A stretch of DNA of 45,528 nucleotides. It comes from a virus. The translations under genes and the position numbers were made by a program. The stretch covers positions 1 to 45,528 of IMG/VR virus record IMGVR_UViG_3300044972_001081; one strand, 5' to 3'. The notes beneath the pieces are model-generated. The model did no database searches and was not told the origin of the DNA. It saw nothing but the letters and a program-made list of their open reading frames with translations. Positions 1,382-22,790 of the stretch are shown piece by piece (position 1 is the stretch's first letter; each line of letters begins with the position of its first letter).

Positions 1382-2509
1382 TTAAACCTCCATCCAGTTC
1401 ATCATTGCTTCGTACTTCGGACCGTTACCAACAGAGTCACGTATCTTCTTGATTACAAGGGCCCGAAGTTCCTTTCCGTCAAGAGCAGAGAAGATGAAAG
1501 CAGCATCTTCTTTGTTAAGGAGGTTCGGAACAAAGTTGATAGCAACTTCCTTCTTTACTCCACCATGCAGGACACGAGCAAGAGTGACAAGACCTTCGAG
1601 TCGACCAAGAACGTTTTCAATAGCAGCATCGAGTCGAAGTTCATATGCGCGAACAACAGCAAGATCAGTTGCATCCAACAAAGGCAGGACGTCATCGAGT
1701 TGTTCATTCACGATGATATCAGCAATGTTCCGATCAGAACGGATCAGGTCCTTGGTCTTGTGGATACGGACATACCAATCATTCTTGATTTTCAGCATGT
1801 GGCCCGTGGTAAAACGGATGATGTCACCCTCACGTCCCTGTTGTTGGCGGGCACGTACGATGTAGTCTGACAGCCCACCGTCTACAGACCCATACTGCGG
1901 AACAACCTCGAAAGGAGCACCGAAATGCAAGTTGCTGATATACTCACCAGTAACAGTGTTACGAATGGCGGTCAGGATCAACTTCGGCTCAGAGTAGTCA
2001 ATAACGATCTTGTTGGTCGGTGCAATGTATTCAAAGATCGGAGTTAAGCCATCGTCCATCATATATTCAAGCCAATCATACTGATTAGCATCAAGCAACT
2101 TTTCAGACTCGACAGCGATATCAGTCACACCCATCTTGGTGGCAAGACGAATCATTCCGTTCATGCGGAGCGGACGAATCATCGAGCCGTCCATCTTTTC
2201 CATGATAACATGAGGTTGAGTCATGTCAATCATATAAATCTGAGTCTCTTCACGCTCGTTCACGTTGAAGAACTTGTGATAGGGCCGCGACATGATGTTG
2301 CCTTCAGTATCGAAGATGATACCGCGGCACTCACGACGAATAGCAGCGCCAAGATCATCAGGACCAGCCATGTTGAAAGTATCCGCCATGGCCACAACAT
2401 AGTTAATTACCGTGCCAAACTCGCGCTCAGCAACAATAAATTCGGAACGGCCTTCGATGTAAGGAAGGACATCAGTGATGGTACGAATTTCAGGAAACAC
2501 ATAGTTCAT
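1382..2509 (-). CDS. rnlA: RNA ligase, T4 Rnl1 type
   Basis: The protein joins RNA ends (5'-phosphate to 3'-OH) through an enzyme-AMP intermediate. It has 375 residues, close to the 374 of T4 Rnl1. The nucleotidyltransferase motifs are in order: RECRGIIFD near residue 59, motif I EKMDGS with the AMP-accepting lysine at K105, FEYI (motif IIIa), and KIKNDWYVR (motif V). In T4 this family mends tRNA cut by anticodon nucleases. A kinase-like gene at 22302 and a Thg1-like gene at 18615 could act in the same repair. The start has GGAAG upstream. The identification is firm; the substrate is inferred. Confidence 0.93.
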   Translation of the reverse strand: MNYVFPEIRTITDVLPYIEGRSEFIVAEREFGTVINYVVAMADTFNMAGPDDLGAAIRRECRGIIFDTEGNIMSRPYHKFFNVNEREETQIYMIDMTQPHVIMEKMDGSMIRPLRMNGMIRLATKMGVTDIAVESEKLLDANQYDWLEYMMDDGLTPIFEYIAPTNKIVIDYSEPKLILTAIRNTVTGEYISNLHFGAPFEVVPQYGSVDGGLSDYIVRARQQQGREGDIIRFTTGHMLKIKNDWYVRIHKTKDLIRSDRNIADIIVNEQLDDVLPLLDATDLAVVRAYELRLDAAIENVLGRLEGLVTLARVLHGGVKKEVAINFVPNLLNKEDAAFIFSALDGKELRALVIKKIRDSVGNGPKYEAMMNWMEV

Positions 2510-2511
2510 TT

Positions 2512-2691
2512 TCAGTCTTCCATCATTACAAAAAAGTTGTGGGTGCCAGCAAAGAAGTCGTTCAGCCAGTCATTGATCATTTGCTTGTAGTCGCTATAGT
2601 GAGCGACTGGATGAGTCAGGAGCTTTAGACCTTTGATTGGATCAAAGGTCGTGTAGGCAGTTTCATAAACCGTGTATTCTACATTGATCAT
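2512..2691 (-). CDS. Small hypothetical protein
   Basis: This 59-residue gene starts MINVEYTVYETAY and ends FFVMMED. It is the first gene behind promoter copy 2, with AGAGGAACTGACC as leader, and stops two bases before the RNA ligase start. The correct spacing to promoter, ribosome site and next gene makes it real despite its size. The function is unknown. Confidence 0.8.
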   Translation of the reverse strand: MINVEYTVYETAYTTFDPIKGLKLLTHPVAHYSDYKQMINDWLNDFFAGTHNFFVMMED

Positions 2692-2718
2692 GGTCAGTTC
2701 CTCTTACCTTATAGAATC

Positions 2719-2747
2719 AGTATAAACTATTCAGGTGGTAATGTCAA
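2719..2747 (-). promoter_or_regulatory. Early promoter cassette, copy 2
   Basis: TTGACA (2747-2742), a 17-base spacer and TATACT (2724-2719) are followed by GATTCTATAAGG. The spacer differs from most copies (ATTACCACCTGAATAG...) but matches the copy at 18285-18313. It heads the 2512-gene and RNA ligase message. The -35 lies within the end of the 2731-3069 gene. Confidence 0.9.
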
Positions 2748-3069
2748 CCCACTTAATCAAATTAAAATCAGGAAAAACAATTTTTGCATGCACAACTTCA
2801 CAGAGACCATTCTGAACTCTTGCTTTCCAAAAATCATCAGATCCTTCGCCCTTACCTTCAAGTTCAATTAGAATTTTTGGATATTGCAAGGAGACTCGCG
2901 CGCAATCTTCTTTCCAGTCATACCATTTTGATTCAAAATAATTTGTAAGTGTGGTCCCATCATCCAAAAATTCATAGTCATGAAGATCAAGATCTTTTGC
3001 AATCTTCAAACCTTGGTTTGCATTATCAAGATTTGAAATTTTTAACTCATATTGTGTGTAGTATCCCAT
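2731..3069 (-). CDS. Conserved phage protein (MGYYT...WYDWKED type)
   Basis: The 112-residue product begins MGYYTQYELKI and carries WYDWKED and a GEGSDDFW stretch. This combination I recognise from small conserved proteins in phages and bacteria, function unknown. It is soluble. Its last codons are overprinted by promoter copy 2, and its start overlaps the upstream stop by one base. Confidence 0.75.
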   Translation of the reverse strand: MGYYTQYELKISNLDNANQGLKIAKDLDLHDYEFLDDGTTLTNYFESKWYDWKEDCARVSLQYPKILIELEGKGEGSDDFWKARVQNGLCEVVHAKIVFPDFNLIKWVDITT

Positions 3070-3320
3070 TAAAATCCCCCGTTAGTGTCCCAGTATTCTG
3101 CATTTTCTTTTTCAATTTGATCCCACTGTTCTTTGAGAATCGACACATCATATTCATTAGCCAAATATGGCTCTTGCCAGTAAGGTTCTCCGACAGGTGC
3201 CATTACAGAGGTTCCACCTTCATGAACATAGAACATATCGCTGTAATCTGCATCTACATAGATGCGAATTTCCCCGCCTTCTTCATAAGAAGACCAGCTA
3301 GCTTCATAAACAAGTTGCAT
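3069..3320 (-). CDS. Hypothetical acidic protein
   Basis: The product has 83 residues, is strongly acidic and rich in tyrosine and tryptophan. There is no membrane segment or known motif. It is linked by a TAATG overlap to the 2731-3069 gene and lies in the message from promoter copy 3. Confidence 0.7.
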   Translation of the reverse strand: MQLVYEASWSSYEEGGEIRIYVDADYSDMFYVHEGGTSVMAPVGEPYWQEPYLANEYDVSILKEQWDQIEKENAEYWDTNGGF

Positions 3321-3321
3321 T

Positions 3322-3477
3322 TTAAACCTTCATACATAGAAGTGTAAGTTTGGCATAGCGCCGAATTTCTTCATCGGATGATTCTGAAAAGTCAAACGAA
3401 TACATTCGTTCATAGACTAGACTGGCAGTTTCCATAGGAATATTCAGAAGTTCAGAGATAACACTAACCCAGTACAT
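3322..3477 (-). CDS. Small hypothetical protein
   Basis: This 51-residue gene starts MYWVSVISELLNIPM behind AAAGGAAACACA and is the first gene of promoter copy 3. It ends one base before the 3320 start. It is helical, with a SESSDEE acidic patch near the middle. The function is unknown. Confidence 0.75.
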   Translation of the reverse strand: MYWVSVISELLNIPMETASLVYERMYSFDFSESSDEEIRRYAKLTLLCMKV

Positions 3478-3506
3478 TGTGTTTCCTTTTCATGCCTTAT
3501 AGAATC

Positions 3507-3535
3507 AGTATAAACTATTTGAAATCAAATGTCAA
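3507..3535 (-). promoter_or_regulatory. Early promoter cassette, copy 3
   Basis: TTGACA (3535-3530), 17 bases, TATACT (3512-3507), then GATTCTATAAGG. The spacer has the usual ATTTG-N4-CAAAT dyad. It follows directly on the terminator at 3536-3564. Confidence 0.92.
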
Positions 3536-3564
3536 CAAAAAAGGCGAGGAATTTCTCCCTCGCC
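3536..3564 (-). terminator. Rho-independent terminator of the SPFH operon
   Basis: On the minus strand GGCGAGG pairs with CCTCGCC across an 8-base loop and is followed by six T. It lies 25 bases after the SPFH stop and abuts promoter copy 3, giving a clean unit boundary. Confidence 0.9.
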
Positions 3565-3588
3565 GAAATTTATTTGTAAGGATAGATC

Positions 3589-4980
3589 TTATTTTGTAGT
3601 AATGGTTGTATCCACTGCAAGATCTTTTGCGGTTTTCACCATCAGCATGTTCATGAAACTTTCAACAGTCCCAAGGGCCGAACCAGAATTTCCTGAACCA
3701 TTGCCACCAGCAATAACTGTGGATGGAACATTGATCTTGGAAGCAGCATCAGCCCATACTTTTTGTGCTTCGGTCCATGCCGCAAGTTTTTGTGCAAGAG
3801 CACCATCGGCCTCAAGGATTACACGCTTTTCATATGCAGCAGCATCGGCACCAACTTGAACAGATTCAGCATCAATTCGAGCACGTTCAAGGTTAATAGC
3901 AGCAGTTTCCTTTGCTACACGAGCCTCTTCACGGACACGTTCAGCAGCAGTAATTGCAAGTTTCTTCTGGGTTTCGGCCTCGGTGGTCAACTGGATTTGT
4001 TCGGTCTTTGCTTCTGCTTGACGCTTTGCAATTTCAGTATCACCTTCTGCAATTCGGAGCAGACGCTGTTCCTCTTGTTCAAGCCGCTGTTCCTTTGCAA
4101 TGACCCGACGAGATACAGCATCCTTACGCTTCTTTTGTTGTTCCTCGAATGCAGGGTCAGCCTCGATTTTTTCTAGGATTGCCTGACTAACTAGGATACC
4201 ATATTGCAGATATTCCGGAACAGTACGAATTTCTTTACCATTACCATCAAGCACCTTTTCGGCAACCATGATAGTGACGGTGGTAGCACCAACATCTGAA
4301 GTATCAGCTGCGTTTACAGTATCAGATGCAGCAGCACCGGAAGAATCAGCATTCAGTGCATCAATTACTTTTGGAACAAGTTGGACTTTGGGTTGACCTT
4401 TCATCAGAGTATCTTTGAACTCGATTTTAAATTGATCTCGCATCTGGCCAGAGAAATACTGTTCCATAGTAAACATGTTAGCAACAGTGTCGATTGCTGT
4501 AGTAACACTTGGACGAAGTGTCGTGGTAATCAGGCGCTCTGGTGACCGAAAGTCGCGGGCCATTTTCAAGAATTGGTCCGAATCTTGAGGAATACCGAAA
4601 CGAGTTGTTTGGAATACATCGCCAGTCCAGTTATCACTCATACGAACATTATATGAGCCGCTAACTGAACTTCCTTCAGCGTCAGGATCAAGTGTATGTG
4701 CTACAGTAATGAAGTAAGGCCATGCAGTTGAAGTTCCCCAGGCAGAAAAATACCAACCAGTTTCACAAGTTGAACTTTCAGATCCAAAAATTGTTCGGAC
4801 GTGTTGGCAATAACCAGCATCATTATAACTGATGGCACCAAAACCACCGATGAGAAGACCAAATGATGCAAGAATAGGAACAAAAATCCTTTTCAAAGTA
4901 CCAAGTTCTGCCGGCACCCTGACAAGTTTAAGTACAGTAGCAAGTACCAAAAATAGTACGGCCATAAAAATAGTAAACAT
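3589..4980 (-). CDS. SPFH/Band-7 (flotillin/prohibitin-like) membrane protein
   Basis: The 463-residue product has one or two N-terminal membrane segments (about 3-22 and 32-52), a middle part of SPFH type (about 50-270) and a long Ala/Glu/Arg-rich coiled coil (about 270-420) like the flotillin tail. Such proteins build ring-shaped scaffolds in the inner membrane and often control membrane proteases. It is the third gene of an operon with two tiny membrane proteins, ends at a strong terminator, and has an excellent AAGGAG site. The role in infection is unknown; membrane remodelling or protection against membrane-acting defences is possible but inferred. Confidence 0.85.
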   Translation of the reverse strand: MFTIFMAVLFLVLATVLKLVRVPAELGTLKRIFVPILASFGLLIGGFGAISYNDAGYCQHVRTIFGSESSTCETGWYFSAWGTSTAWPYFITVAHTLDPDAEGSSVSGSYNVRMSDNWTGDVFQTTRFGIPQDSDQFLKMARDFRSPERLITTTLRPSVTTAIDTVANMFTMEQYFSGQMRDQFKIEFKDTLMKGQPKVQLVPKVIDALNADSSGAAASDTVNAADTSDVGATTVTIMVAEKVLDGNGKEIRTVPEYLQYGILVSQAILEKIEADPAFEEQQKKRKDAVSRRVIAKEQRLEQEEQRLLRIAEGDTEIAKRQAEAKTEQIQLTTEAETQKKLAITAAERVREEARVAKETAAINLERARIDAESVQVGADAAAYEKRVILEADGALAQKLAAWTEAQKVWADAASKINVPSTVIAGGNGSGNSGSALGTVESFMNMLMVKTAKDLAVDTTITTK

Positions 4981-4994
4981 TGTATAGTTTCTCC

Positions 4995-5096
4995 TTAGTG
5001 TGTTTTATTTAGTTGTGTTTGTTGATCTTTGTATTCGGTGTAAACCCATACAAAGAATGGAATATATGCTAGAAAAAGTGCAATCGCTAAGTTCAT
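4995..5096 (-). CDS. Tiny membrane protein, SPFH operon
   Basis: The gene encodes 33 residues: MNLAIALFLAYIPFFVWVY as one membrane segment, then a short polar tail. Its ATG overlaps the upstream TGA (ATGA), and its TAA is part of the CTAAGGAG ribosome site of the SPFH gene. This coupling suggests that it works with the SPFH protein. Confidence 0.72.
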   Translation of the reverse strand: MNLAIALFLAYIPFFVWVYTEYKDQQTQLNKTH

Positions 5097-7018: not shown

Positions 7019-7288
7019 TCACTTCACTCCGTCACGAAGATAAGCGGATTCCAGAAGAAGAATGACGCCAAGAGCTTCAAGCGGATTAAGCTTTTCGCCG
7101 AGAGCACTTGCAGTCACAGCCCGTTTTTCAAAGAAGTCGATTGCTTCGCGAACCGGCTTGCCTTCCATGTATCCAATATTTGAGTGGATACCCATCTTAA
7201 CAATGTCGTAGTCAGCACGGTTCACCCATTCAGGGTTGTGAGGAGTAAGGTTTTCGCGCATTTGTTGAAGCAATTCTAGAAAGTTCAT
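7019..7288 (-). CDS. Hypothetical protein
   Basis: The 89-residue product (MNFLELLQQM...) is soluble and helical. It is the first gene of promoter copy 4, with AAAGGAACC as ribosome site. It heads a three-gene unit with the membrane protein at 6883 and the acidic protein at 6698. No family was recognised. Confidence 0.75.
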   Translation of the reverse strand: MNFLELLQQMRENLTPHNPEWVNRADYDIVKMGIHSNIGYMEGKPVREAIDFFEKRAVTASALGEKLNPLEALGVILLLESAYLRDGVK

Positions 7289-7316
7289 GGTCGGTTCCTT
7301 TATACCTTATAGAATC

Positions 7317-7345
7317 AGTATAAACTATTTGAAAGCAAATGTCAA
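7317..7345 (-). promoter_or_regulatory. Early promoter cassette, copy 4
   Basis: TTGACA (7345-7340), a 17-base spacer with ATTTG-CTTT-CAAAT, TATACT (7322-7317), then GATTCTATAAGG. The TGA of the -35 is the stop of the 7342-7611 gene. Confidence 0.93.
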
Positions 7346-7611: not shown

Positions 7612-7635
7612 GCTGACCTCTTTGATTATAGAATC

Positions 7636-7664
7636 AGTATAAACTATTTGAAAGCAAATGTCAA
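7636..7664 (-). promoter_or_regulatory. Early promoter cassette, copy 5
   Basis: TTGACA (7664-7659), a 17-base spacer identical to copy 4, TATACT (7641-7636), then GATTCTATAA. The TGA of the -35 ends the 7661-7912 gene. Confidence 0.93.
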
Positions 7665-7912
7665 CGGATAATTAGTTCTTTCTTTGCAAAAACCATTTCT
7701 GGATCCAACCCAACAAGATCAATACCACAAAGATCGAACTTCTTGTAACTCAAGCATTCTTTATAATCTAGAATTTCACCAAGAAGTTCCTTGATCTTTG
7801 CGATGTATTTCTCTGGTGCTGTGCTGTTTATTCTTGAAACATTTTCATAGAGACCAATTTCATCATATCTAATACCACTTTTTAATTTTGGAAATGTCGG
7901 TAATTTTTCCAT
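7661..7912 (-). CDS. Hypothetical protein downstream of DNA ligase
   Basis: The 83-residue product begins MEKLPTFPKLKSGI and is soluble. Its start is coupled by TAATG to the DNA ligase stop; its own stop lies within the next promoter's -35. The position suggests an accessory to ligase or chance grouping. Function unknown. Confidence 0.7.
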   Translation of the reverse strand: MEKLPTFPKLKSGIRYDEIGLYENVSRINSTAPEKYIAKIKELLGEILDYKECLSYKKFDLCGIDLVGLDPEMVFAKKELIIR

Positions 7913-11671: not shown

Positions 11672-11861
11672 CTGGACCAAATACTGTTAGGATACTTTGT
11701 ATTTCTTCAAATACTAGTTTATATTGTCTGACTGCTTTTAATAGTTGTTTATCTTGAATATCATCAATGTTTAGATAATCAAGGAACGTATGTTCAATTC
11801 CTTCGTACTCTGCTTTATTCCACAGTTCTTCATTACTGAAACCTTTAACTAGTTGTGCCAT
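11658..11861 (-). CDS. Hypothetical protein
   Basis: The 67-residue product (MAQLVKGFSNEELW...) is acidic and helical. Its start shares one base with the stop of the phosphoesterase gene (TAATG), so it is in the same message. Function unknown. Confidence 0.68.
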   Translation of the reverse strand: MAQLVKGFSNEELWNKAEYEGIEHTFLDYLNIDDIQDKQLLKAVRQYKLVFEEIQSILTVFGPDEDY

Positions 11862-12454
11862 TAAATCATTCCGATACTTTCAAATAGTAGCCTATCAATA
11901 GGCCACTGCTTTTCACGGTAATTCTTTGCATCAAGAGCAAGATCTTCAATATTGACTGGTGTATAGTTCCGCATTTCTACACATACGGAAGTATAAGGGC
12001 CCATTTTTGGCGAACCCATTGTATGGGTATGACCGTGAACTTGGAACATCGGTGTGTCAATATTCTTGCCACGGAATAGTGAAGATGGATGTAATGGCAC
12101 GTGATGAAAGACTAAACCATGATCAGTAAACATTCTCCAAAATAGTGTCTTCTTAAAAAATCCACCACTCGATAGAAATTGAATATCATCGTGATTACCA
12201 ACGATCAATCGCTTGGAGCCATTAAACTTTGGCCACGCGATTTTAAACTCGTCTTTGCTCCCAAAAAACGTGTCACCAAGTGTGTATACAATATCACCAG
12301 GCTTCACAACAGAATTCCAACGGTCGATCAAGAACTCATTCATCTGATCTACAGTATCAAATTCACGAGTACGATTACCTTTATAGTCAATAAAATTCAA
12401 AATGTTAGCGTGATTGTAGTGTAAATCCGAAATAACCCAGATATCTTTACTCAT
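11861..12454 (-). CDS. Calcineurin-like metallophosphoesterase
   Basis: The 197-residue product carries the full set of two-metal phosphoesterase motifs: SDLHYNH (D10, H12), YTLGD, VGNHDD, HHVPLH and VHGHTH. It should hydrolyse a phosphoester; the substrate cannot be read from the sequence. It is the first gene of the operon from the promoter at 12482-12509. A second, more PP-like member lies at 20810-21499. Family assignment is secure. Confidence 0.9.
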   Translation of the reverse strand: MSKDIWVISDLHYNHANILNFIDYKGNRTREFDTVDQMNEFLIDRWNSVVKPGDIVYTLGDTFFGSKDEFKIAWPKFNGSKRLIVGNHDDIQFLSSGGFFKKTLFWRMFTDHGLVFHHVPLHPSSLFRGKNIDTPMFQVHGHTHTMGSPKMGPYTSVCVEMRNYTPVNIEDLALDAKNYREKQWPIDRLLFESIGMI

Positions 12455-14223: not shown

Positions 14224-15723
14224 TTAATACCTATCTACAATAACGTCTTCGTACTCTGCTGGTTTGAGCTCAGACCGCTCACGAACTTGCTCGAACGTAG
14301 ACTTGTTGAACAGCTCGCCGTTCAGGTATACCAGCTTCAAGAGGTTGTCTTCTGGTGTTACCATTTCCTCTGGTAGAGTTCTGTATCCGCAAGACCCCAA
14401 ACCACATTGGCGTACCAGAGCAAGACGACCCTCTTTAGACTTTTTGCCGTGATCGCCAACTGGATCCTTGCTGAACCCAACCCAAGGACCGTCAGCAATT
14501 CGAATTGCACTGGCCTTCATTGCATATTTCAGAGTATCACGATTCCATGCTTGCAACAGTCCGCCTCCCATACCAAATGCGATATTCTCTAGACTATAAC
14601 CTGCCGCAATGATATTGTCAACAAGTACTTGCAGAGTATGTTCGTTCAAACCGTCACCTTGAATAACTTTGACAATAGGTGATCCGTCTGGACGTTTTGC
14701 AAGAACTTTGTAGCCCTTGCTATTGACAGTGTAGCCAAAGCATTCTGCGAGGATGTCCATGATTTCAATTGGAACGGTCATCGGATCGCCAGAGTCAGGG
14801 CGGACGACCAAAGTGCCACCACTGTCGATCACCAAGTCTTTGAGTTGATTACCCCAAAGTTCACGAACTGCTTCGTAGATGTTGTAACTATCAGACACGC
14901 AGGCATAGATGCTTCCCGCAAAGCTGAACTGCGTAACCATATTGCGGTATGCTTCAACCTCGTTAGCACGACCCCAGCTGGTAACGGTGCTGTGCTCACT
15001 AGCAGGAATGGTCCGAGCAACAGGAGGTGCATCCAGACTAGTAATGTCAGCATCGTAGTATGCATATGCACCAAGAATACCTTCGACTGTATCCGACCCC
15101 CAGAAGTTAACCAAGTGACTCATACCACCAAGAACAGCACTTTCAGTTGAGCTTACACCGCGTCCACCAAAGTCGTGCAGAGCAAACTTGATCACCAAAT
15201 TCATCAACACGTCAACGGGAATGTCAGAGGTTTTCACCAGAGCCTTTGCAATGATCTTCTTGAACTTACGGCTCTTGGTAGCAACAGTAGAAGGATACCA
15301 AACCCCACGCAACAGTGCCATTTCGATGTAGGAGGTCAGCCAGCCAAATCCACTCGTGGTATTTTTGACCTGCACTTGGACGTTATGAGTTTCCATAACG
15401 GTTCCCTCTGGAACGGCAGTGATTTCGAGTGGCAAAAATCCACCAAACTCGTTGAGCACACGTTCCCAACCTTCACGATTGAAGGGAGCGCCGTATACTT
15501 TGAAGATCAGCTCAGCAAAGTTGATGTCCGCCATAGTAATTGGTGTGGTCATGTAATCCATGATCCAAGCCTGTCCACCAAAGAAGGTACTTTTGTCTTC
15601 CCCACCACGAGACTCAATATATGAGCTGATGTGAGTTGTGCCTGGCGGGTATTGTTTAAATTGGGATGGTTTGTAACCGTCAGTGCGCAGAATCGCAGTG
15701 AGTAGGTGTAGAATGTTTTTCAT
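14224..15723 (-). CDS. nadV: Nicotinamide phosphoribosyltransferase (NAMPT)
   Basis: The enzyme makes NMN from nicotinamide and PRPP, the first step of NAD salvage. The 499-residue length fits the family (human NAMPT 491). Family signatures are clear: GRGVSSTES...HLVNFWGSDT, IPASEHSTVTSWG, VVRPDSGDP and GMGGGLLQ. With the NMN adenylyltransferase at 16288 it forms a complete nicotinamide-to-NAD route, as in phage KVP40 and the pathway called NARP2. The unit has its own promoter (15783-15810), a leader hairpin and a GAGGAG ribosome site, and ends at 13942. Confidence 0.95.
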   Translation of the reverse strand: MKNILHLLTAILRTDGYKPSQFKQYPPGTTHISSYIESRGGEDKSTFFGGQAWIMDYMTTPITMADINFAELIFKVYGAPFNREGWERVLNEFGGFLPLEITAVPEGTVMETHNVQVQVKNTTSGFGWLTSYIEMALLRGVWYPSTVATKSRKFKKIIAKALVKTSDIPVDVLMNLVIKFALHDFGGRGVSSTESAVLGGMSHLVNFWGSDTVEGILGAYAYYDADITSLDAPPVARTIPASEHSTVTSWGRANEVEAYRNMVTQFSFAGSIYACVSDSYNIYEAVRELWGNQLKDLVIDSGGTLVVRPDSGDPMTVPIEIMDILAECFGYTVNSKGYKVLAKRPDGSPIVKVIQGDGLNEHTLQVLVDNIIAAGYSLENIAFGMGGGLLQAWNRDTLKYAMKASAIRIADGPWVGFSKDPVGDHGKKSKEGRLALVRQCGLGSCGYRTLPEEMVTPEDNLLKLVYLNGELFNKSTFEQVRERSELKPAEYEDVIVDRY

Positions 15724-15753
15724 AATAGAACTCCTCTATTGTTAGTGTTGTTA

Positions 15754-15772
15754 CCAATTCTCTCTGAACTGG
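15754..15772 (-). promoter_or_regulatory. Leader hairpin with AGAGA loop (NAMPT)
   Basis: On the minus strand CCAGTTC-AGAGA-GAATTGG forms a 7-bp stem (one G-U pair) a few bases after the expected transcription start. Two other leaders in this region have a stem closing the same AGAGA loop. Confidence 0.6.
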
Positions 15773-15782
15773 ATTTAGTTTA

Positions 15783-15810
15783 AATATATACTACTTTACT
15801 TGTTTGTCAA
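15783..15810 (-). promoter_or_regulatory. Promoter of the NAMPT unit
   Basis: TTGACA (15810-15805), 16 bases, TATATT (15788-15783). It lacks the GATTCTATAAGG cassette. Confidence 0.85.
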
Positions 15811-15817
15811 CTGATTC

Positions 15818-16111
15818 TTATGCGGCTTGATCTTGGGCATCATGCCATTCTACAGTCCATTTTTGTAATTTTCTGTGGCCTTTTGGCCAATCATTCATGC
15901 CAAGGTATGTGACTTGATCACAGCATGGGCATTTAAAGCATACAGTTGGATTACAATCACATTTTTCATCAAAGTAACCTGGGCGATAGCGTAGATCATT
16001 CCAATCAATTTCAAGTAGTGCTTCGCAGCCTTCATTATCGCCACCCCAACCAGTGCAGCGATGTTGAATGGTCCATTGTTCTTTTGTTTTGCCTAGTTCA
16101 AGAATTTTCAT
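15818..16111 (-). CDS. Zinc-ribbon-like protein
   Basis: The 97-residue product has HRCTGWGG...C near the start and KCDCN...CFKCPCCDQ in the middle, enough cysteines for one or two zinc sites. It lies between the two NAD genes, behind TTGGAGAAGC, and could bind nucleic acid or a protein. No family was recognised. Confidence 0.75.
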   Translation of the reverse strand: MKILELGKTKEQWTIQHRCTGWGGDNEGCEALLEIDWNDLRYRPGYFDEKCDCNPTVCFKCPCCDQVTYLGMNDWPKGHRKLQKWTVEWHDAQDQAA

Positions 16112-16139
16112 AGCTTCTCCAATACTTCATCTAATTCTT

Positions 16140-16283
16140 TCAGGAAACTCCAGGCGGGATTATCGCCCGAAGTATGTTTTCATTATCAATATATAATGAA
16201 ACCAAATAACCTAATTCTTGAAGTTCTCGTTTATTGGCAGAGATATTCAAGACATAATCTGATGCTGTTAGTTGTACATCCAT
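16140..16283 (-). CDS. Small hypothetical protein
   Basis: The gene encodes 47 residues (MDVQLTASDYVLNIS...IIPPGVS). The ATG at 16283 follows the NMNAT-Nudix stop by a few bases, with TGGAT as ribosome site. A longer reading from 16433 only overlaps the Nudix domain out of frame. Function unknown. Confidence 0.68.
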   Translation of the reverse strand: MDVQLTASDYVLNISANKRELQELGYLVSLYIDNENILRAIIPPGVS

Positions 16284-16287
16284 TTGT

Positions 16288-17352
16288 TTATCCAATGTTA
16301 ATGAAGTTGTCGATGATATGAAAATGATCTTCGAAGAGCTTCTCTTGTTTGACTTGGTTGAATGGAACCCAGAACGCTTTTTCAGCATCATCGGAACCTT
16401 TGACCTTTGGAAGTTCACCAACACCAAGGTCAATCAAGAATGCCTGTGTGATGGTACGACCACGAGATGAGCGGTTCGGAGCATCAAAAGTCTTGGACTC
16501 TTTGATAGAACCCTTGAGAACGGGAACAGGAACCTTGATTTTTGTTTCCTCTTTCAACTCACGGATAGCCCCATCAAGCATAGTTTCATCTTGATTGAGG
16601 AACCCGCCAGGCAGCGCCCATAGTCCTTTTCCTGGCATGTCGCCACGTTTCACGAGAAGGATGTGACCTGACTGAATAACAACAGAGTCAACAGTCATGA
16701 AGGTTGGTGGGAACGGCGCAGATTTCCAAGCTTCCTTGTATTTCTTGACCATATCATATTCTTTAGAAAGAGTATCCCATGCACCGCCAATTTTGGCATT
16801 TTGCATGATAGTATTAGCCATCGCATCATATGAAGGTTTTGGCATTGCGGCAGCAATTTTACTTGGGGACCCATTTTCACCGAACAACATCTTCCGAATA
16901 TCAGTAGCATTGATACCGTTAACATCACCAACTTCGACATGGTCCTTCCAACGAGGAAAGATGTTCAAGTAGTAACTAGTACTGTCCTTCGAATGACCGA
17001 TAAGACCAACATCTTTTGCATCAGGGACGGTTTCATCAACAATCTTCTGGATCGCGTTGACCCACTTGTTGTCGTCATATGGAAAGTCAGAGACTGGAAC
17101 CACTTTGATGCGAGGTGTCTTGTTTCGACCCTGTGCACCGTCATAAGTGAAGTGCTTTGGTTCATTGAAGCAAGCTTCAATCATAGTCTTGCGTTCTTGG
17201 AATGTAAAGGGATTTCGGATATTTCGTGCGGCAAAAGAGGAACCGACTACGATTACTACTTCTTTTGCTTGTTCTAATGCAGCATCAATAACTGCTTTGT
17301 GTCCATTGTGAAACGGTTGGAATCTTCCGATAAAAACTAGTGCATCGCGCAT
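16288..17352 (-). CDS. Bifunctional NMN adenylyltransferase / Nudix hydrolase
   Basis: The N-terminal part (about 1-180) is a nucleotidyltransferase: FIGRFQPFHNGH holds the HxGH motif and NATDIRKML the second signature. It makes NAD from NMN and ATP. The C-terminal part (about 200-350) has an intact Nudix box spread over GGFLNQDE and RELKEE, as in NadM-Nudix proteins that also cleave ADP-ribose. The ATG at 17352 is preferred; the longer reading uses TTG. The ribosome site GGAG lies in the loop of a small A/T stem (GCAAAA/TTTTGC). It is the second enzyme of the NAD salvage pair. Confidence 0.93.
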   Translation of the reverse strand: MRDALVFIGRFQPFHNGHKAVIDAALEQAKEVVIVVGSSFAARNIRNPFTFQERKTMIEACFNEPKHFTYDGAQGRNKTPRIKVVPVSDFPYDDNKWVNAIQKIVDETVPDAKDVGLIGHSKDSTSYYLNIFPRWKDHVEVGDVNGINATDIRKMLFGENGSPSKIAAAMPKPSYDAMANTIMQNAKIGGAWDTLSKEYDMVKKYKEAWKSAPFPPTFMTVDSVVIQSGHILLVKRGDMPGKGLWALPGGFLNQDETMLDGAIRELKEETKIKVPVPVLKGSIKESKTFDAPNRSSRGRTITQAFLIDLGVGELPKVKGSDDAEKAFWVPFNQVKQEKLFEDHFHIIDNFINIG

Positions 17353-17380
17353 TTGCAAAAACTCCTTTTGCTATATTGAG

Positions 17381-17434: not shown

Positions 17435-17437
17435 CAA

Positions 17438-18107: not shown

Positions 18108-18124
18108 TGATCCTCTCTGGATCA
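18108..18124 (-). promoter_or_regulatory. Leader hairpin with AGAGA loop (oxygenase-like gene)
   Basis: TGATCC-AGAGA-GGATCA again, followed by GCAAAAGGAGTTTTTGCA before the ATG at 18079. Here it lies between two genes of one message, not at a transcript start. Confidence 0.68.
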
Positions 18125-18136
18125 GATGCTTATTTA

Positions 18137-18256
18137 TTAATTTGCTTTACAGATGCGAACCATCCAACGGTAAAAACCGAATTTTCGGCTTTGACTGACT
18201 TTAGCACCTTGAGAAAGAATAAAGTCACGGTCGATATTCATCTTACGTAGAGGCAT
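18137..18256 (-). CDS. Tiny basic protein
   Basis: The gene encodes 39 residues (MPLRKMNIDRDFILSQGAK...), net basic. It is the first gene of promoter copy 7 behind AAAAGGAACAACAC. Function unknown; the size and charge suit a small regulator or host-takeover peptide. Confidence 0.72.
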   Translation of the reverse strand: MPLRKMNIDRDFILSQGAKVSQSRKFGFYRWMVRICKAN

Positions 18257-18284
18257 GTGTTGTTCCTTTTCACCTTATAGAATC

Positions 18285-18313
18285 AGTATAAACTATTCAG
18301 GTGGTACTGTCAA
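18285..18313 (-). promoter_or_regulatory. Early promoter cassette, copy 7
   Basis: TTGACA (18313-18308), 17 bases, TATACT (18290-18285), then GATTCTATAAGG. The spacer resembles copy 2. The TGA of the -35 ends the 18310-18618 gene. Confidence 0.92.
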
Positions 18314-18618
18314 CCCTTCTTTTCACAATCGGGATAAGTACAATGCAAATTATGTAAAGGGCAGTTACCGTTTTCATCTTTGTTTGGACATATTGACTCT
18401 GTTTCTTCTAATAGACTAATGAGTCGTTCAGCACCTGCTTTTGCATCAGCTGCCATTACATCAGGTGAATATCCAAGCAGATATGCAGCAACCATGGCAC
18501 CATAAAGGGAAGCAAGAAGATCATCAGCATCTTTACTATCTTCAAGTTGTTGCAGCCATTCCTGTAGGTGAATGGCTGCATTATTATTGATTTTCTTTAC
18601 TCGTTCATCTTCACTCAT
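18310..18618 (-). CDS. Hypothetical protein with C-terminal Cys/His cluster
   Basis: The 102-residue product has a helical N-terminal two thirds and a tail with CPNKDENGNCPLHNLHC...C, which could bind zinc. It is coupled by ATGA to the Thg1-like gene, so a joint role in RNA processing is possible. No family was recognised. Confidence 0.72.
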   Translation of the reverse strand: MSEDERVKKINNNAAIHLQEWLQQLEDSKDADDLLASLYGAMVAAYLLGYSPDVMAADAKAGAERLISLLEETESICPNKDENGNCPLHNLHCTYPDCEKKG

Positions 18619-19394
18619 TTCACATATCCTACTCTCTGGTCAAGTGTATAGTCACCAAAGAACACAAGATCAAGTTCTTGAATTTTAGTTCGTTTAACAA
18701 GAACATCAGCATCTGGACGTTTATGTTCTGGTATCTTCATAAGTTCTGCTTGAGTCAAATATGACTCAACAGTAACTGGCTTTGCATAAGTGCCATACTT
18801 ATATTTGTTTGGAAGCTCGGCCCAATCAGTAAAATAGTCAGACTTAAGAAGTGCTTTCATTTCTTCACCTGATAGACCGTGCATCTTCGAATGACCCACA
18901 GTCCAACGAAATAGTGATGAAATACTGTTCTTTCGAGCATCTTGAACACGCCACAAAAGTACGTTTGATGCTTCGGCAAGGTCAGGAACAGCCCATGCAC
19001 GGCAGTCAAAGAAAGCAGGTTTATCCATCTTTACACACTCAGAAAGAGTGGCATTAAAATGGAATGTTGCCATAGATGCAAGGATCGAGTTGATCTTTGA
19101 TACTTTACCACCGAACATATATTCAGATGACTTCTCACCTGGTGTGTAGATCAATGTGATTTCGTCCGATTGTGTATACCCAATACTTGCATGAGTGTAC
19201 TTGACAAGGTTCATCATAGTGTTGACCATGACACCACCAAGGATATCATCGAATGGCTTCTTGAAACCTTTTGTGAATTTACTGAAACCTTTGCCGTCGA
19301 TCCGAACACAAAGGATCTTATCAATTGGTACATAAGCTTCTGTATATTCGTGTTCGTGTGCTTTCATCCTGTCGCCAAATTCATCGTTTTTCAT
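18615..19394 (-). CDS. Thg1-like 3'-5' RNA polymerase (tRNA guanylyltransferase family)
   Basis: The 259-residue product has the Thg1 signatures VRIDGKGFSKFTKGF (metal ligand D33) and GYTQSDEITLIY (D77, E78). Thg1 adds G to the 5' end of tRNA(His); Thg1-like proteins repair truncated tRNA 5' ends by templated 3'-5' addition. With the RNA ligase at 1382 and the kinase-like protein at 22302 it suggests a tRNA repair set. The start overlaps the upstream gene by 14 bases. Family call firm, substrate inferred. Confidence 0.93.
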   Translation of the reverse strand: MKNDEFGDRMKAHEHEYTEAYVPIDKILCVRIDGKGFSKFTKGFKKPFDDILGGVMVNTMMNLVKYTHASIGYTQSDEITLIYTPGEKSSEYMFGGKVSKINSILASMATFHFNATLSECVKMDKPAFFDCRAWAVPDLAEASNVLLWRVQDARKNSISSLFRWTVGHSKMHGLSGEEMKALLKSDYFTDWAELPNKYKYGTYAKPVTVESYLTQAELMKIPEHKRPDADVLVKRTKIQELDLVFFGDYTLDQRVGYVK

Positions 19395-19644
19395 GTCTTG
19401 CTACTTCTTTCACAACTTCAATAAAATTATCCCATGTTAATTCTTCTCTGGTTATATTAATTTTCCTACCCTTATGAGAATCATTGGGCTCCAGTGTCAC
19501 CCAAAAACAATCTATATCATTTTGTGACAAATGTAAAGGGAAAAATCCAAGTTCTCGAACCTTTGTTCTAAGATCTTCTAGAATATCTTCTCTTCGTCCA
19601 AAGTGACCTGGATCAAAACTTTCAATTGTCTGCTTTAGATTCAT
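19381..19644 (-). CDS. Hypothetical protein upstream of the Thg1-like gene
   Basis: The 87-residue product begins MNLKQTIESFDPGHF. The longer reading from 19764 would overlap the membrane protein gene out of frame, so the ATG at 19644 is chosen. It is soluble and mixed alpha/beta. Function unknown. Confidence 0.7.
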   Translation of the reverse strand: MNLKQTIESFDPGHFGRREDILEDLRTKVRELGFFPLHLSQNDIDCFWVTLEPNDSHKGRKINITREELTWDNFIEVVKEVARHEKR

Positions 19645-19870
19645 CTTTTGATTTCCAGTTAAGTTTAAACAACTTTGCAAGCATCCATGCACTTCCGATA
19701 ATAATAATAGCAGGGACTGTAATGAACCAAAGCATAGCAAACATAAACACCATGAAAAGTCCAAGTATTGTATCTTCAGTTAATGGATATTTCTTTTTAT
19801 TTTGGTGGACAAATACAAAAATACTTCCGACAAGCATTGTAAGTGCAAACATAATAGCATAGATACTCAT
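19622..19870 (-). CDS. Two-helix membrane protein
   Basis: The 82-residue product has membrane helices at about 2-21 and 38-64 and a charged C-terminus (KSKDESKADN). It starts in a TAATG-type junction with the HD gene. Function unknown. Confidence 0.72.
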   Translation of the reverse strand: MSIYAIMFALTMLVGSIFVFVHQNKKKYPLTEDTILGLFMVFMFAMLWFITVPAIIIIGSAWMLAKLFKLNWKSKDESKADN

Positions 19871-20481
19871 TACAAATCTCCTTTTAGAATACGGGCTAGA
19901 TTCATGGTAGATACGATACCTCGCATCACTTGTTTGTAAAATTCACGATGATCTGGATCAGTTTCCATGTTCTTTTGAACTCGATCATATAGACCACCCA
20001 TGAACTTGATGTTGTTATCTACAAATGTGACTTCATTAATATTATAGAGGTTCATTGATTCATCCATAATAGATTGAAAATTGTAGAAGGTATCAAGTGG
20101 ACTTGTCAATGCATGAAGGTCTGCACGAATGATAGCAGAAGAATTAACTACACTTGCATGAACAGCATGATCGGTGGTCCGCATAATCAGACTGTAAACC
20201 TGAGCTTGTGTCGAAGGACTCAATTCACATCCGCTATACTCAGAAACCATTTTAACAAAAATCTTAGCAGATCTAAGTTCTTTTTCCGGCAATGCGTCAT
20301 ACACAATATCATGAAATAGAACAGCCCAATCAAGAGCTTCATCATAAGGTTCGTCGGTTTTGTGTAGATACTCGTACATAGCAAGAACATGACATCCATT
20401 GTGGTATTCGCAATCAGAATAATCTAGAATATCCCAGGCGGCGCTTCCAAGTTCCGTATCTGCAATTTTGGTCCAGTTCAT
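19870..20481 (-). CDS. HD-domain phosphohydrolase
   Basis: The 203-residue product has HNGCHVLAMYEYL followed by LDWAVLFHDIVYD, with the HD pair at H57-D58. This is the pattern of predicted metal-dependent HD hydrolases. It may act on a nucleotide or dinucleotide; the substrate is not known. The ATG at 20481 overlaps the upstream TGA as ATGA, so it is preferred over 20493. Confidence 0.85.
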   Translation of the reverse strand: MNWTKIADTELGSAAWDILDYSDCEYHNGCHVLAMYEYLHKTDEPYDEALDWAVLFHDIVYDALPEKELRSAKIFVKMVSEYSGCELSPSTQAQVYSLIMRTTDHAVHASVVNSSAIIRADLHALTSPLDTFYNFQSIMDESMNLYNINEVTFVDNNIKFMGGLYDRVQKNMETDPDHREFYKQVMRGIVSTMNLARILKGDL

Positions 20482-20813
20482 GTAATAACCCAATCATTTT
20501 TGTTAATAACATCCGTAGCATCAACTTCATCCAAAGTTTGGAAATGCGGTGCCAGTTTTTCTTCATACTGTTTTGCGACACTCATGCCATATGAACTTGC
20601 GCCATATGTATCTTTATGACACGCATATGTGGAACCACTAGAACCAATGAAGAGATAATAATCATCTTCTTCAATCAGTTTAGTAATCCCGCTATTCATA
20701 CGCCAGCTGTCACTGCCACCGTATCCACCATACCAAGATCCAAAGACTCGGTAGTGTGGATCTTTACCAGTAATCTTGATAATCATCCACTTATCTGGTT
20801 GATAGTAACTCAT
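20478..20813 (-). CDS. Hypothetical protein
   Basis: The 111-residue product is rich in Tyr, Gly and Ser (WYGGYGGSDSWRMNSG, GASSYGMS). It is soluble and looks beta-rich. ATGA overlaps join it to the phosphoesterase and the HD gene. No family was recognised. Confidence 0.72.
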   Translation of the reverse strand: MSYYQPDKWMIIKITGKDPHYRVFGSWYGGYGGSDSWRMNSGITKLIEEDDYYLFIGSSGSTYACHKDTYGASSYGMSVAKQYEEKLAPHFQTLDEVDATDVINKNDWVIT

Positions 20814-21499
20814 GGTTTACCTCTCTTTCGTTGCATCTCTGGCCACGTAACTTCCAATGTTTCCATATCTACGTCAATGTAGCTGAGTTCATTTAGGCAA
20901 ATGAAGCGCGTTCCATCAATCACCTCGTCTGCATCGCAGTGCCAGTGGCCAAAAATGTGAAGTTTTGGTTTATGAATTTCAAACATCGTTTCAAATGCCG
21001 AACCTGTTCTAGTACGATATTGAGCACCAGATAGTGATTTATTCCGTTCAATAAACAACTTGTTTGAAACTGAAAGCGGACAATCGTGAGTCACCATCAC
21101 TCGAGGCTGAACAGTTTCATAGATCGAGATCAGTCGATTAAATTCTTCATATGAAAGTTCTTCATCTTCAAATAGATCAATACCTTTTGTGCGCCATTGA
21201 TAATCAATAGACCAAGCACCGCCAATAAACATCACGTCATTTTGAATAGTACCATCTTTAATCCATGGCAGCATTTCTCGGCACTGAGCAGGATTATCGT
21301 GATTACCACGGATGAAGTGGCCATTCACTCGAATTAACATATCTTCGAGTGACTCATGCCAAAAATCACCTTGACCCATGCCGACATTCATGTCACCGAC
21401 TTGGATCACAGTATTGACATCATTGGGAATATTGTCTAGTACAAGACTCAACTCATATTTGTAACCGTGTACATCACCAATAAACCTAGTTTTAGCCAT
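20810..21499 (-). CDS. Calcineurin-like phosphoesterase (Ser/Thr phosphatase-like)
   Basis: The 229-residue product has FIGDVHGY (D9, H11), QVGDMN, RGNHDN, VTHDCP and FGHWH in order, the metal-binding set of the PP1/PP2A-like and lambda-phosphatase-like enzymes. It could remove phosphate from proteins or nucleotides. It is the second metallophosphoesterase of the window and differs clearly from the one at 11861. Family certain, substrate unknown. Confidence 0.9.
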   Translation of the reverse strand: MAKTRFIGDVHGYKYELSLVLDNIPNDVNTVIQVGDMNVGMGQGDFWHESLEDMLIRVNGHFIRGNHDNPAQCREMLPWIKDGTIQNDVMFIGGAWSIDYQWRTKGIDLFEDEELSYEEFNRLISIYETVQPRVMVTHDCPLSVSNKLFIERNKSLSGAQYRTRTGSAFETMFEIHKPKLHIFGHWHCDADEVIDGTRFICLNELSYIDVDMETLEVTWPEMQRKRGKP

Positions 21500-21728
21500 T
21501 CTTTTTCTCTTTCAAGTAAACATAGACTGTGTTCATTGAATTACTATGCGCTGGTCCTGCAAAGTTCCACTGAACGTGATCAACCCACCCGCCTGCTTTA
21601 TCACCGTCGACAAATTCACCAACTCGTGGGATGTGAAAAGGATCATCAATGTAAAATTTATTATCAGAAACTCCATTCTGATCAATTTCTATAACCCACA
21701 TACGAAGTTTCATTTGATTCAGACTCAT
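21492..21728 (-). CDS. Hypothetical protein
   Basis: The 78-residue product starts MSLNQMKLRMWVIEIDQ behind GGAGAGAATCAA and ends in a Lys-rich tail. It overlaps the phosphoesterase start. Upstream lies a partial promoter cassette: TATACTGATTCTATA is present (21760-21746) but no -35 at the right distance. Function unknown. Confidence 0.7.
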   Translation of the reverse strand: MSLNQMKLRMWVIEIDQNGVSDNKFYIDDPFHIPRVGEFVDGDKAGGWVDHVQWNFAGPAHSNSMNTVYVYLKEKKNG

Positions 21729-21762
21729 TTGATTCTCTCCATTGATATAGAATCAGTATATA

Positions 21763-21807
21763 CTATTCTTCGAAAACTTCGACCCTATCACTAAAGGTCT
21801 CGACCAT
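21763..21807 (-). CDS. Possible 14-residue peptide
   Basis: MVETFSDRVEVFEE follows GAGGTTTTGGAA at a suitable distance and ends just before the partial cassette. The reading is possible but too short to be sure; it may be only a shadow of intergenic sequence. Confidence 0.3.
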   Translation of the reverse strand: MVETFSDRVEVFEE

Positions 21808-21817
21808 TTCCAAAACC

Positions 21818-22030
21818 TCAAGTAACCGATTTGGCAGGTTTAACAGGCTTGTTAGCCTTGCGGAACTCGCGGCGGCGCCGCGCAACCAATTCGCGAGTAG
21901 CACGGGGAGATTCGTTGCCTGGTGCCAAGAAAGGTTGGAAAACAGTTGCTCCTTTATTACGAAGGAATTCGTCAATCAGATCGCGGGACTCAGGTGTAAT
22001 ATCGTCGCGGCCAGTTTGAGGTTGTGCCAT
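21818..22030 (-). CDS. Small basic protein
   Basis: The 70-residue product begins MAQPQTGRDDITPESRDLI and ends in a very basic part with RRRREFRKANKPVK. It has its own promoter and AAAGGAAA ribosome site. This local stretch is visibly more GC-rich than its neighbours. The shape resembles small phage proteins with a short helix and basic tail; DNA or RNA binding is likely but not shown. Confidence 0.75.
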   Translation of the reverse strand: MAQPQTGRDDITPESRDLIDEFLRNKGATVFQPFLAPGNESPRATRELVARRRREFRKANKPVKPAKSVT

Positions 22031-22065
22031 GGGGTATTTCCTTTTGTTGTATTTTCGATATATTA

Positions 22066-22094
22066 TATATATCAGGTTCTGTAGGTATTGTCAA
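22066..22094 (-). promoter_or_regulatory. Promoter of the small basic protein
   Basis: TTGACA (22094-22089), 17 bases, TATATA (22071-22066). The -10 is weaker, and a TATAAT lies a few bases further on at a poor distance. Confidence 0.65.
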
Positions 22095-22119
22095 CCGATT
22101 CTTTTGGTACTACGAGTTT

Positions 22120-22302
22120 TTATTTTACAAGTCCTTGGTCTAACCAATCCATCATTAAAATTTTGAGGTCCTCAATTGATTGACATTCGAGGACCTCTTG
22201 TATTCGTTTTTCTTTTTGAATTAGTTCACGTTGTTCTTTTATGATCTCGCGAACTTGACTTGGTGTCAGACCGATTTCTCTGCCTTTTGCAATCAAGTTC
22301 AT
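22120..22302 (-). CDS. Hypothetical helical protein
   Basis: The 60-residue product has a GLTPSQVREIIKEQREL part resembling a helix-turn-helix edge followed by a charged coiled coil. It is coupled to the kinase-like gene by TAATG. It could be a small regulator or a partner of the kinase; not recognised. Confidence 0.68.
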   Translation of the reverse strand: MNLIAKGREIGLTPSQVREIIKEQRELIQKEKRIQEVLECQSIEDLKILMMDWLDQGLVK

Positions 22303-22790
22303 TAGATCTTGTTTCCATAGATATCATACAGATGAACCTCATCAAATCCTTCACCAAGAGTCGGTTCAACATATGAATCAGCCATGGTTTCAATGATATG
22401 CATTGGAATGATCTTACCAGGACGTGCACCTAGACGAATACCAAGTTCAAGCCATTCATCTCCAGTCTGTGGAGGTACACGACAGATACAGATTTTCCGA
22501 TACGACTTTGGAAACTTCGACAGGATACCAAGGCGCTTCTTGGAAGACATGTTTGTCTGGTCGATTATGACATCTTTGCCTTTTTGTATAGCAAAACCAA
22601 GAAGACTATTACAGGCGGCTGTAGCAGCCTTGATAGTATGTGCAAATTCTTCATTGTAAGATGTACCCATTCGTCTAGCTACATCTTCAATATAATTATC
22701 GGTGCTGTAAATAAAACCATCAAAATCTTCAGGAATAGAAGTAGACTTGCCTGAACCAGGCAGACCAACGAGAACAGTTAAAGTAGGCAT
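22302..22790 (-). CDS. P-loop kinase, polynucleotide-kinase-like
   Basis: The 162-residue product starts MPTLTVLVGLPGSGKST, a Walker A motif, continues with IYSTDNYIE and has IIDQTNMSSKKR in the middle, as in the kinase domain of polynucleotide 5'-kinases (AAA_33 type). It lacks the phosphatase domain of T4 Pnk. It could phosphorylate 5'-OH RNA ends before ligation by the RNA ligase at 1382. The ATG at 22790 with GGAG upstream is chosen over a TTG four codons earlier. The kinase fold is clear; the substrate is inferred. Confidence 0.8.
   Translation of the reverse strand: MPTLTVLVGLPGSGKSTSIPEDFDGFIYSTDNYIEDVARRMGTSYNEEFAHTIKAATAACNSLLGFAIQKGKDVIIDQTNMSSKKRLGILSKFPKSYRKICICRVPPQTGDEWLELGIRLGARPGKIIPMHIIETMADSYVEPTLGEGFDEVHLYDIYGNKI

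What the first reader, a model, noticed from the sequence alone, without database searches (positions are those of the whole stretch)
1382..22790. Dispersed RNA-repair set: Rnl1-type ligase, PNK-like kinase, Thg1-like polymerase
Rnl1 and Pnk of T4 repair tRNA cut by host anticodon nucleases. Here a kinase-like protein without phosphatase domain (22302) and a Thg1-like enzyme (18615), able in its family to rebuild tRNA 5' ends by 3'-5' addition, accompany the ligase. A phage that could replace lost 5' nucleotides, not only reseal cuts, would be a new twist on tRNA repair.
Basis: inference. Interest (0 to 1): 0.65.

Follow-up and report, generated by a model that had tools for sequence, protein, structure and literature searches.

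The report
Phage RNA repair gene cluster
A large bacterial virus carries a conserved set of genes that look able to mend broken tRNAs, including an enzyme that can add letters back to the front end of RNA; such kits have been predicted in large phages before, but what this front-end enzyme does during infection has not been tested.

Summary
All three genes are real. The ligase (1382-2509) is Rnl1-type. The Thg1 homologue (18615-19394) is a bacterial Thg1-like protein (TLP): closest to Bacillus thuringiensis TLP, core catalytic residues kept. The kinase (22302-22790) folds most like polynucleotide kinases but lacks T4 Pnk's acceptor-binding Arg38.

The set is larger and less dispersed than described. 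Kinase, a calcineurin-like phosphoesterase, an HD phosphohydrolase and the TLP lie in one co-directional, partly overlapping run (23065-18310). The neighbourhood recurs, reshuffled, in divergent phages, once as contiguous HD-kinase-Rnl1. Kinase relatives lie near Rnl1 in 33 of 80 loci, against 0 of 80 control loci.

The 'new twist' is not new: Aravind's group linked Thg1 with polynucleotide kinase and RNA ligase in 2010 and in 2021 listed Thg1 as a 5'-end restorer in jumbo phages; 122 phage records here carry it. TLP chemistry suits 5' ends paired to a template (acceptor stems), not anticodon-loop cuts, so the TLP probably repairs a different lesion from the ligase.

Verdict: a good new example of a known, untested kind.

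The parts
22302..22790 (-). stand-alone PNK-like P-loop kinase (TTG alternative start at 22802)
   Evidence: AAA_33 3.6e-10, phrog_505/2071/6931; model pLDDT 94.7, nearest fold C. thermocellum Pnkp kinase Z 15.5
20810..21499 (-). MPE1, calcineurin-like phosphoesterase
   Evidence: Metallophos 4.6e-11; contiguous with kinase in G004 and with kinase-TLP in L254; weak profile match to RNA lariat debranching enzyme 2.8e-5
19870..20493 (-). HD-domain phosphohydrolase, candidate 3'-end healing enzyme
   Evidence: HD motif residues H31/H35, H61-D62, D125 invariant; phrog_19425 5.6e-6; next to kinase in six of six distinct HD phages
19381..19764 (-). small ORF of unknown function overlapping the TLP start, conserved near the TLP in G004
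   Evidence: 41.6% identity, E 4.7e-22 in G004; no family
18615..19394 (-). Thg1-like protein (3'-5' RNA polymerase family, TLP type)
   Evidence: Pfam Thg1 1.6e-28; BtTLP 4kgk 3.5e-30; catalytic residues invariant
18310..18618 (-). small conserved ORF downstream of the TLP, unknown function
   Evidence: homologues downstream of TLP in G003 and G004
11861..12454 (-). MPE2, second calcineurin-like phosphoesterase; its relatives lie beside phage kinases and ligases
   Evidence: phrog_547 9.6e-43; in 23/80 kinase loci against 2/80 controls
1382..2509 (-). Rnl1-type RNA ligase
   Evidence: RNA_lig_T4_1 5.9e-23; T4 Rnl1 1.6e-27
16288..17358 (-). neighbour: bifunctional NMN adenylyltransferase/Nudix (NAD salvage), not a repair enzyme itself
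   Evidence: NF003786 1.3e-126; next to ligase-kinase pair in Ruegeria phages
14224..15723 (-). neighbour: nicotinamide phosphoribosyltransferase (NAD salvage)
   Evidence: phrog_448 3.4e-142

Best explanation
This is the RNA-repair set of a large phage, probably of an alphaproteobacterium. Proposed mechanism: the HD and calcineurin-like phosphoesterases clear 2',3'-cyclic or 3' phosphates and the stand-alone kinase phosphorylates 5'-OH ends. The healed ends then go two ways. Rnl1 reseals broken loops, as in T4. The TLP uses the kinase-made 5' phosphate, activates it with ATP or GTP, and rebuilds missing 5' nucleotides opposite the intact 3' strand of the acceptor stem. The target is presumably host or phage tRNA damaged by defence nucleases. 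Shown here: presence, residue conservation, fold of the kinase, conserved gene neighbourhoods. Inferred: every activity, the order of steps, the substrates and the counter-defence role.
For: Kinase-MPE1-HD-TLP in the window, HD-kinase-MPE1-TLP in G004, kinase-HD-TLP in G003 and L062, HD-kinase-TLP in L144. HD-kinase-Rnl1 contiguous in L147 and kinase-TLP-MPE1 in L254. Rnl1 in 33/80 kinase loci against 0/80 primase control loci, p 3.5e-12; MPE2 23/80 against 2/80, p 4e-6; 24 and 16 of 57 kinase clusters at 70% identity. Ligase and kinase genes overlap in phages RpAliso, MAL1, MD18 and Cr30. PNK-like kinase genes abut or overlap TLP genes in Plesiocystis, Lentisphaera, Enhygromyxa and other bacteria. 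Catalytic residues intact in the TLP. Kinase fold nearest to bacterial Pnkp. Precedents: HD-type phosphatase with PNK in phage RM378 (cited in PMC1997131); Thg1-PNK-ligase neighbourhoods (PMC2904730).
Against: No activity was measured. The kinase lacks the T4 Arg38 equivalent, and its fold margin over O-phosphoseryl-tRNA kinase is only about 1 Z unit. The HD protein scores below Pfam's cut-off and its model was poor (pLDDT 46). Only 5 of 82 phage Thg1 loci carry this kinase within 10 kb, so the TLP link is confined to this phage group plus L234, L254 and some bacteria. The ligase is about 16 kb from the TLP. No tRNA gene was found in the 137 kb contig.
Confidence: 0.6

Rival explanations
1. 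The TLP is a true tRNA-His guanylyltransferase that adds G-1 to phage or host tRNA-His, and has nothing to do with damage repair.
For: Family name and PHROG annotation; the relative G003 encodes a tRNA-His without G-1 and with A73, the configuration on which eukaryotic Thg1 acts.
Against: The protein is of the TLP type, far from eukaryotic Thg1. A73 without G-1 is the normal state in the Rhodobacteraceae-Rhizobiales-Caulobacterales-Hyphomonadaceae clade (PMC3937112), and such alphaproteobacteria use an atypical HisRS that does not need G-1 (PMC6471195). Thg1 phages infect many unrelated hosts.
Confidence: 0.12
2. The kinase, HD, phosphoesterase and Nudix proteins act on nucleotide signals or NAD metabolites (counter-signalling or NAD salvage), and the TLP and ligase are unrelated passengers of the same accessory region.
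For: NAMPT and NadM-Nudix genes sit beside the cluster; P-loop kinases of AAA_33 type also include small-molecule kinases; HD and calcineurin-like folds have many substrates.
Against: HD-kinase-Rnl1 and ligase-kinase gene pairs without the NAD genes are common; the kinase's nearest folds act on RNA, DNA or tRNA.
Confidence: 0.15
3. The kinase makes 5' phosphates mainly for the TLP and not for the ligase; cluster and ligase form two separate repair routes.
For: In this lineage the kinase sits with the TLP while the ligase is 16-40 kb away; bacteria show kinase-TLP pairs; TLP chemistry needs a paired template.
Against: Most phage relatives of the kinase that have a partner pair with Rnl1, not with a TLP.
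Confidence: 0.25

Closest known systems
Bacillus thuringiensis Thg1-like protein (PDB 4kgk; PMC3701042)
   Same: nearest solved relative, 3.5e-30; metal-site and triphosphate-binding residues kept; KNSIS motif
   Different: phage gene inside an RNA-repair cluster; R16 of BtTLP is Thr here; activity untested
Phage T4 Rnl1-Pnk tRNA repair
   Same: Rnl1-type ligase and a polynucleotide-kinase-like P-loop kinase
   Different: kinase has no HAD 3' phosphatase domain and lacks the R38 equivalent; no PNK3P domain found in G001-G004; HD and calcineurin-like proteins instead; TLP added
HD-type Pnk (phage RM378; Deinococcus DRB0098; PMC1997131)
   Same: HD phosphohydrolase paired with a 5' kinase, and in L147 also with an RNA ligase
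   Different: separate genes here, not one fused protein; homology of this HD to the fused HD domains was not tested
Bacterial Thg1-PNK(-RNA ligase) neighbourhoods (PMC2904730)
   Same: kinase gene adjacent to TLP gene, sometimes with an RNA ligase
   Different: the phage cluster adds HD and MPE genes; the bacterial kinases read show Asp-x-x-Arg, which the phage family lacks
Jumbo-phage RNA-repair complements (PMC7824862); roseophages MAL1 and MD18
   Same: Rnl1 with kinase, Thg1, calcineurin-like phosphoesterases, NAD salvage; RlaP in MAL1, RpAliso, phiN3 and in relative G003
   Different: HD-kinase-TLP clustering; no RlaP seen in the part of this genome that is held

Membership tests
Rnl1 RNA ligase | Nucleotidyltransferase domain with KxDG lysine and motif V | tested here: met
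   aligned to T4 Rnl1 (KEDG/KMDG; KIKSDWY/KIKNDWY); Pfam PF09511 82.3 against 28.3 bits
T4 RnlA equivalog (TIGR02308) | Score above the NCBIfam cut-off | tested here: not met
   143.1 against 242.25 bits; filed as Rnl1-type, not as a T4 RnlA equivalog
Rnl1 RNA ligase | Seals RNA ends | not testable with these tools
   needs purified protein
Thg1-like protein (TLP) | Thg1 domain with metal-binding acidic residues and triphosphate-binding residues | tested here: met
   E14, R31, D33, D77, E78, K100, R132, R149 invariant with BtTLP; Pfam Thg1 99.7 against 29.2 bits
Thg1-like protein (TLP) | Closer to bacterial TLP than to eukaryotic Thg1 | tested here: met
   4kgk 108 bits; 3wbz 39 and 3otb 24 bits
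Thg1-like protein (TLP) | 3'-5' templated polymerase activity | not testable with these tools
   needs assay on 5'-truncated tRNA
T4-type polynucleotide kinase | P-loop, catalytic Asp (T4 D35), lid arginine (T4 R126) | tested here: met
   P-loop, D35, R123/R127 conserved in 44 relatives; aligned to T4 Pnk
T4-type polynucleotide kinase | Acceptor-binding arginine (T4 R38) | tested here: not met
   STDxxIE in the family where T4 has RDDYR; filed as PNK-like only
T4-type polynucleotide kinase | HAD 3' phosphatase (PNK3P) domain | tested here: not met
   no PNK3P match in G001-G004, control genomes ring; records may be incomplete
Polynucleotide kinase fold class | Nearest solved fold is a polynucleotide kinase | tested here: met
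   C. thermocellum Pnkp Z 15.5, 152 aligned, rmsd 3.0; next O-phosphoseryl-tRNA kinase 14.3
HD phosphohydrolase | H...HD...D metal-binding motif | tested here: met
   H31/H35, H61-D62, D125 invariant in three divergent proteins
HD phosphohydrolase | Pfam HD score above cut-off | tested here: not met
   17.6 against 22 bits; phrog_19425 'phosphohydrolase' 5.6e-6; so HD-like by motif
HD-type Pnk | HD domain homologous to that of RM378 or Deinococcus HD-PNK | not tested
   no such sequence was fetched; only gene pairing was shown

The most novel reading that the evidence does not exclude
The kinase-HD-MPE1-TLP cluster is a dedicated pathway that rebuilds tRNA 5' acceptor ends, distinct from the Rnl1 anticodon pathway, and answers host nucleases that attack the acceptor end; it would be the first known in vivo role of a bacterial-type TLP.
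Probability: 0.2. Interest if true: 0.75.

Novelty: new member of a known kind. Interest (0 to 1): 0.42.

Why it matters
The biological job of bacterial and phage Thg1-like 3'-5' polymerases is still open. A compact cluster that ties one to a 5' kinase, two kinds of candidate 3'-end phosphoesterase and, in relatives, an RNA ligase makes the tRNA-repair hypothesis directly testable, the more so because isolated relatives (MAL1, MD18, RpAliso) infect tractable roseobacters. It also points to an HD family and two calcineurin-like families as likely end-healing partners of phage kinases that have no phosphatase domain of their own.

Tried and rejected
HD structure prediction with three sequences failed (pLDDT 46) and was not searched. 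A bacterial genome scan with the HD alignment found nothing; tblastn of HD against phage isolates found nothing. PF18735 was searched by mistake for RlaP (it is HEPN_RiboL-PSP); the PF10127 search followed. A long ORF next to a TLP in L077 first looked like an HD fusion, but only its C-terminal part matches anything (phrog_19425) and the N-terminal part is probably stop-free GC-rich DNA. Automatic clustering of TLP neighbours gave mainly antisense shadows of the TLP ORF and was dropped. Coincidence of the kinase-Rnl1 pairing was rejected by the primase control. A tail-fibre attachment role of the ligase (phrog_562 is also annotated so) was not pursued. A 2H phosphoesterase match in G001 is below cut-off. 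The HD and TLP enrichments alone (4/80 against 0/80, p 0.12) are not significant in the kinase set; their support comes from conserved order in divergent phages.
Full report
What is there. The window is a 45.5 kb virus record that lies with 99.98% identity inside a 137 kb contig, G001. Nearly all genes run on the minus strand. The three genes of the finding are present at the stated places: an Rnl1-type RNA ligase at 1382-2509, a Thg1 homologue at 18615-19394 and a P-loop kinase at 22302-22790. The last coordinate is an ATG preferred over the TTG at 22802, because relatives begin there.

The ligase aligns over some 234 residues with T4 Rnl1, including the nucleotidyl-accepting lysine motif (KMDG) and motif V. 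It passes Pfam but not the stricter T4 RnlA equivalog cut-off.

The Thg1 homologue is a bacterial-type Thg1-like protein (TLP). Its best solved relative is the B. thuringiensis TLP (3.5e-30); a fungal-type Thg1 (3wbz) gives 4.3e-9 and 3otb 1.9e-4. Eleven further phage proteins and BtTLP share E14, R31, D33, D77, E78, K100, R132 and R149 without exception. By the alignment these correspond to residues that the BtTLP paper describes as active-site or triphosphate contacts (PMC3701042). TLPs characterised so far restore missing 5' nucleotides opposite a paired 3' strand and accept many tRNAs (PMC3701042).

The kinase was modelled with 44 sequences at pLDDT 94.7. Its nearest solved folds are the kinase domain of C. 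thermocellum Pnkp (Z 15.5), O-phosphoseryl-tRNA kinase (14.3) and T4 Pnk (13.8). It keeps the P-loop, the catalytic aspartate and two lid arginines, but has STDxxIE where T4 Pnk has its acceptor-binding Arg38. It is therefore called PNK-like, not a T4 Pnk family member, and its substrate must be tested.

The surroundings. Between kinase and TLP lie a calcineurin-like phosphoesterase (MPE1, 20810-21499) and an HD phosphohydrolase (19870-20493). Genes from 23065 to 18310 are co-directional and several overlap by a few bases. A second calcineurin-like phosphoesterase (MPE2) is at 11861-12454. NAD-salvage genes (NAMPT 14224-15723; NadM-Nudix 16288-17358) separate it from the TLP.

Is this more than chance? 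In relatives whose TLPs are only about 60% identical, the neighbourhood is kept but reshuffled: HD-kinase-MPE1-TLP in G004, kinase-HD-TLP in G003 and L062, HD-kinase-TLP in L144. In L147, another phage, HD, kinase and Rnl1 ligase are contiguous; in L254 kinase, TLP and MPE1 follow each other. All six distinct phages found by the HD search have the kinase within 2.4 kb. Among 80 loci found by the kinase alone, 33 have an Rnl1 ligase within 8 kb and 23 an MPE2 relative; 80 loci of similar mean length around a primase gene gave 0 and 2 (p 3.5e-12 and 4e-6). After grouping kinases at 70% identity, 24 and 16 of 57 groups show the link. In isolated phages RpAliso, MAL1, MD18 and Cr30 the ligase and kinase genes overlap. 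The TLP link is weaker: 5 of 82 phage Thg1 loci, all of this group, have the kinase, plus L234 and L254 from the kinase search. In bacteria a PNK-like kinase ORF overlaps or abuts the TLP ORF in six of 80 loci, one of them (L371) with stop-to-stop ORFs that overlap so far that the call is doubtful; such pairs were published in 2010 (PMC2904730).

How it most likely works. Shown: the enzymes are present with intact core residues (kinase R38 excepted) and are linked in the genome. Inferred: HD and MPE proteins heal 3' ends, the kinase makes 5' phosphates, Rnl1 seals loops and the TLP rebuilds 5' acceptor-stem ends. A cut anticodon loop offers the TLP no paired template, so the TLP probably serves another lesion rather than the classic PrrC cut. 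No HAD 3' phosphatase of the T4 type was found in G001-G004, which fits replacement by HD or calcineurin-like enzymes, an option that PMC7824862 mentions for some jumbo phages.

tRNA-His maturation is unlikely to be the purpose. The relative G003 encodes about 50 tRNAs. Its tRNA-His has A73 and no G-1. That is normal for the Rhodobacteraceae-Rhizobiales-Caulobacterales-Hyphomonadaceae clade (PMC3937112), and such alphaproteobacteria use an atypical histidyl-tRNA synthetase that does not need G-1 (PMC6471195). Isolated phages with related proteins infect Ruegeria, Phaeobacter, Sinorhizobium and Caulobacter. This also suggests the kind of host, though none is proven, and the tRNA belongs to the relative, not to this phage.

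Novelty. Thg1 in a phage (201phi2-1), its neighbourhood with PNK and RNA ligase, and a possible repair role against host defence were proposed in PMC2904730. PMC7824862 lists Thg1 in jumbo phages as restoring 5' ends beside RNA ligases, kinases and RlaP. 122 phage records carry a Thg1 homologue. HD-type Pnk is known from phage RM378 and Deinococcus (PMC1997131). The set is thus a new member of a known kind. What is added here is the recurrent clustering of a stand-alone HD gene and calcineurin-like genes with this kinase family and, in one phage group, with a TLP.

Noticed in passing
32458-35475 (-): The ribonucleotide reductase large subunit gene is split in two by a probable split intein: 34387-35475 ends in an intein N-part and 32458-33477 begins with an intein C-part ending in VHN|C (Pfam Intein_splicing 1.3e-5 and 2.4e-5, both below cut-off). 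A free-standing homing-endonuclease-like ORF (33468-34316, phrog_655) lies between the halves: a fractured-gene arrangement.
   Followed up: partly
35472-36752 (-): The small subunit of ribonucleotide reductase carries an N-terminal ATP-cone domain, which is more usual on the large subunit.
   Followed up: no
104-173, 2685-2753, 3471-3543, 7282-7345, 7626-7665, 18253-18316, 23560-23620, 30214-30280, 32149-32225: Dispersed repeats of about 40-70 bp, mostly between genes, 85-100% alike and also present elsewhere in the 137 kb contig; perhaps shared promoters.
   Followed up: no
14224-17358 (-): NAMPT and NadM-Nudix NAD-salvage genes next to the TLP, and next to the ligase-kinase pair in Ruegeria phages; possibly a counter to NAD-depleting defence.
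   Followed up: no
L039:15934-16008 (relative G003): Phage tRNA-His with A73 and no encoded G-1, as in a clade of alphaproteobacteria, within about 50 tRNA genes.
   Followed up: partly
L061 (Xanthomonas phage XacN1):6001-9075: Kinase of this family followed by a gene annotated methyltransferase and a metallophosphoesterase, reminiscent of bacterial Pnkp-Hen1 repair.
   Followed up: no
L038:13656-14039 (contig G004): ARAGORN reports a permuted tmRNA gene on this phage contig with tag ANTNAKPEVRLAA.
   Followed up: no
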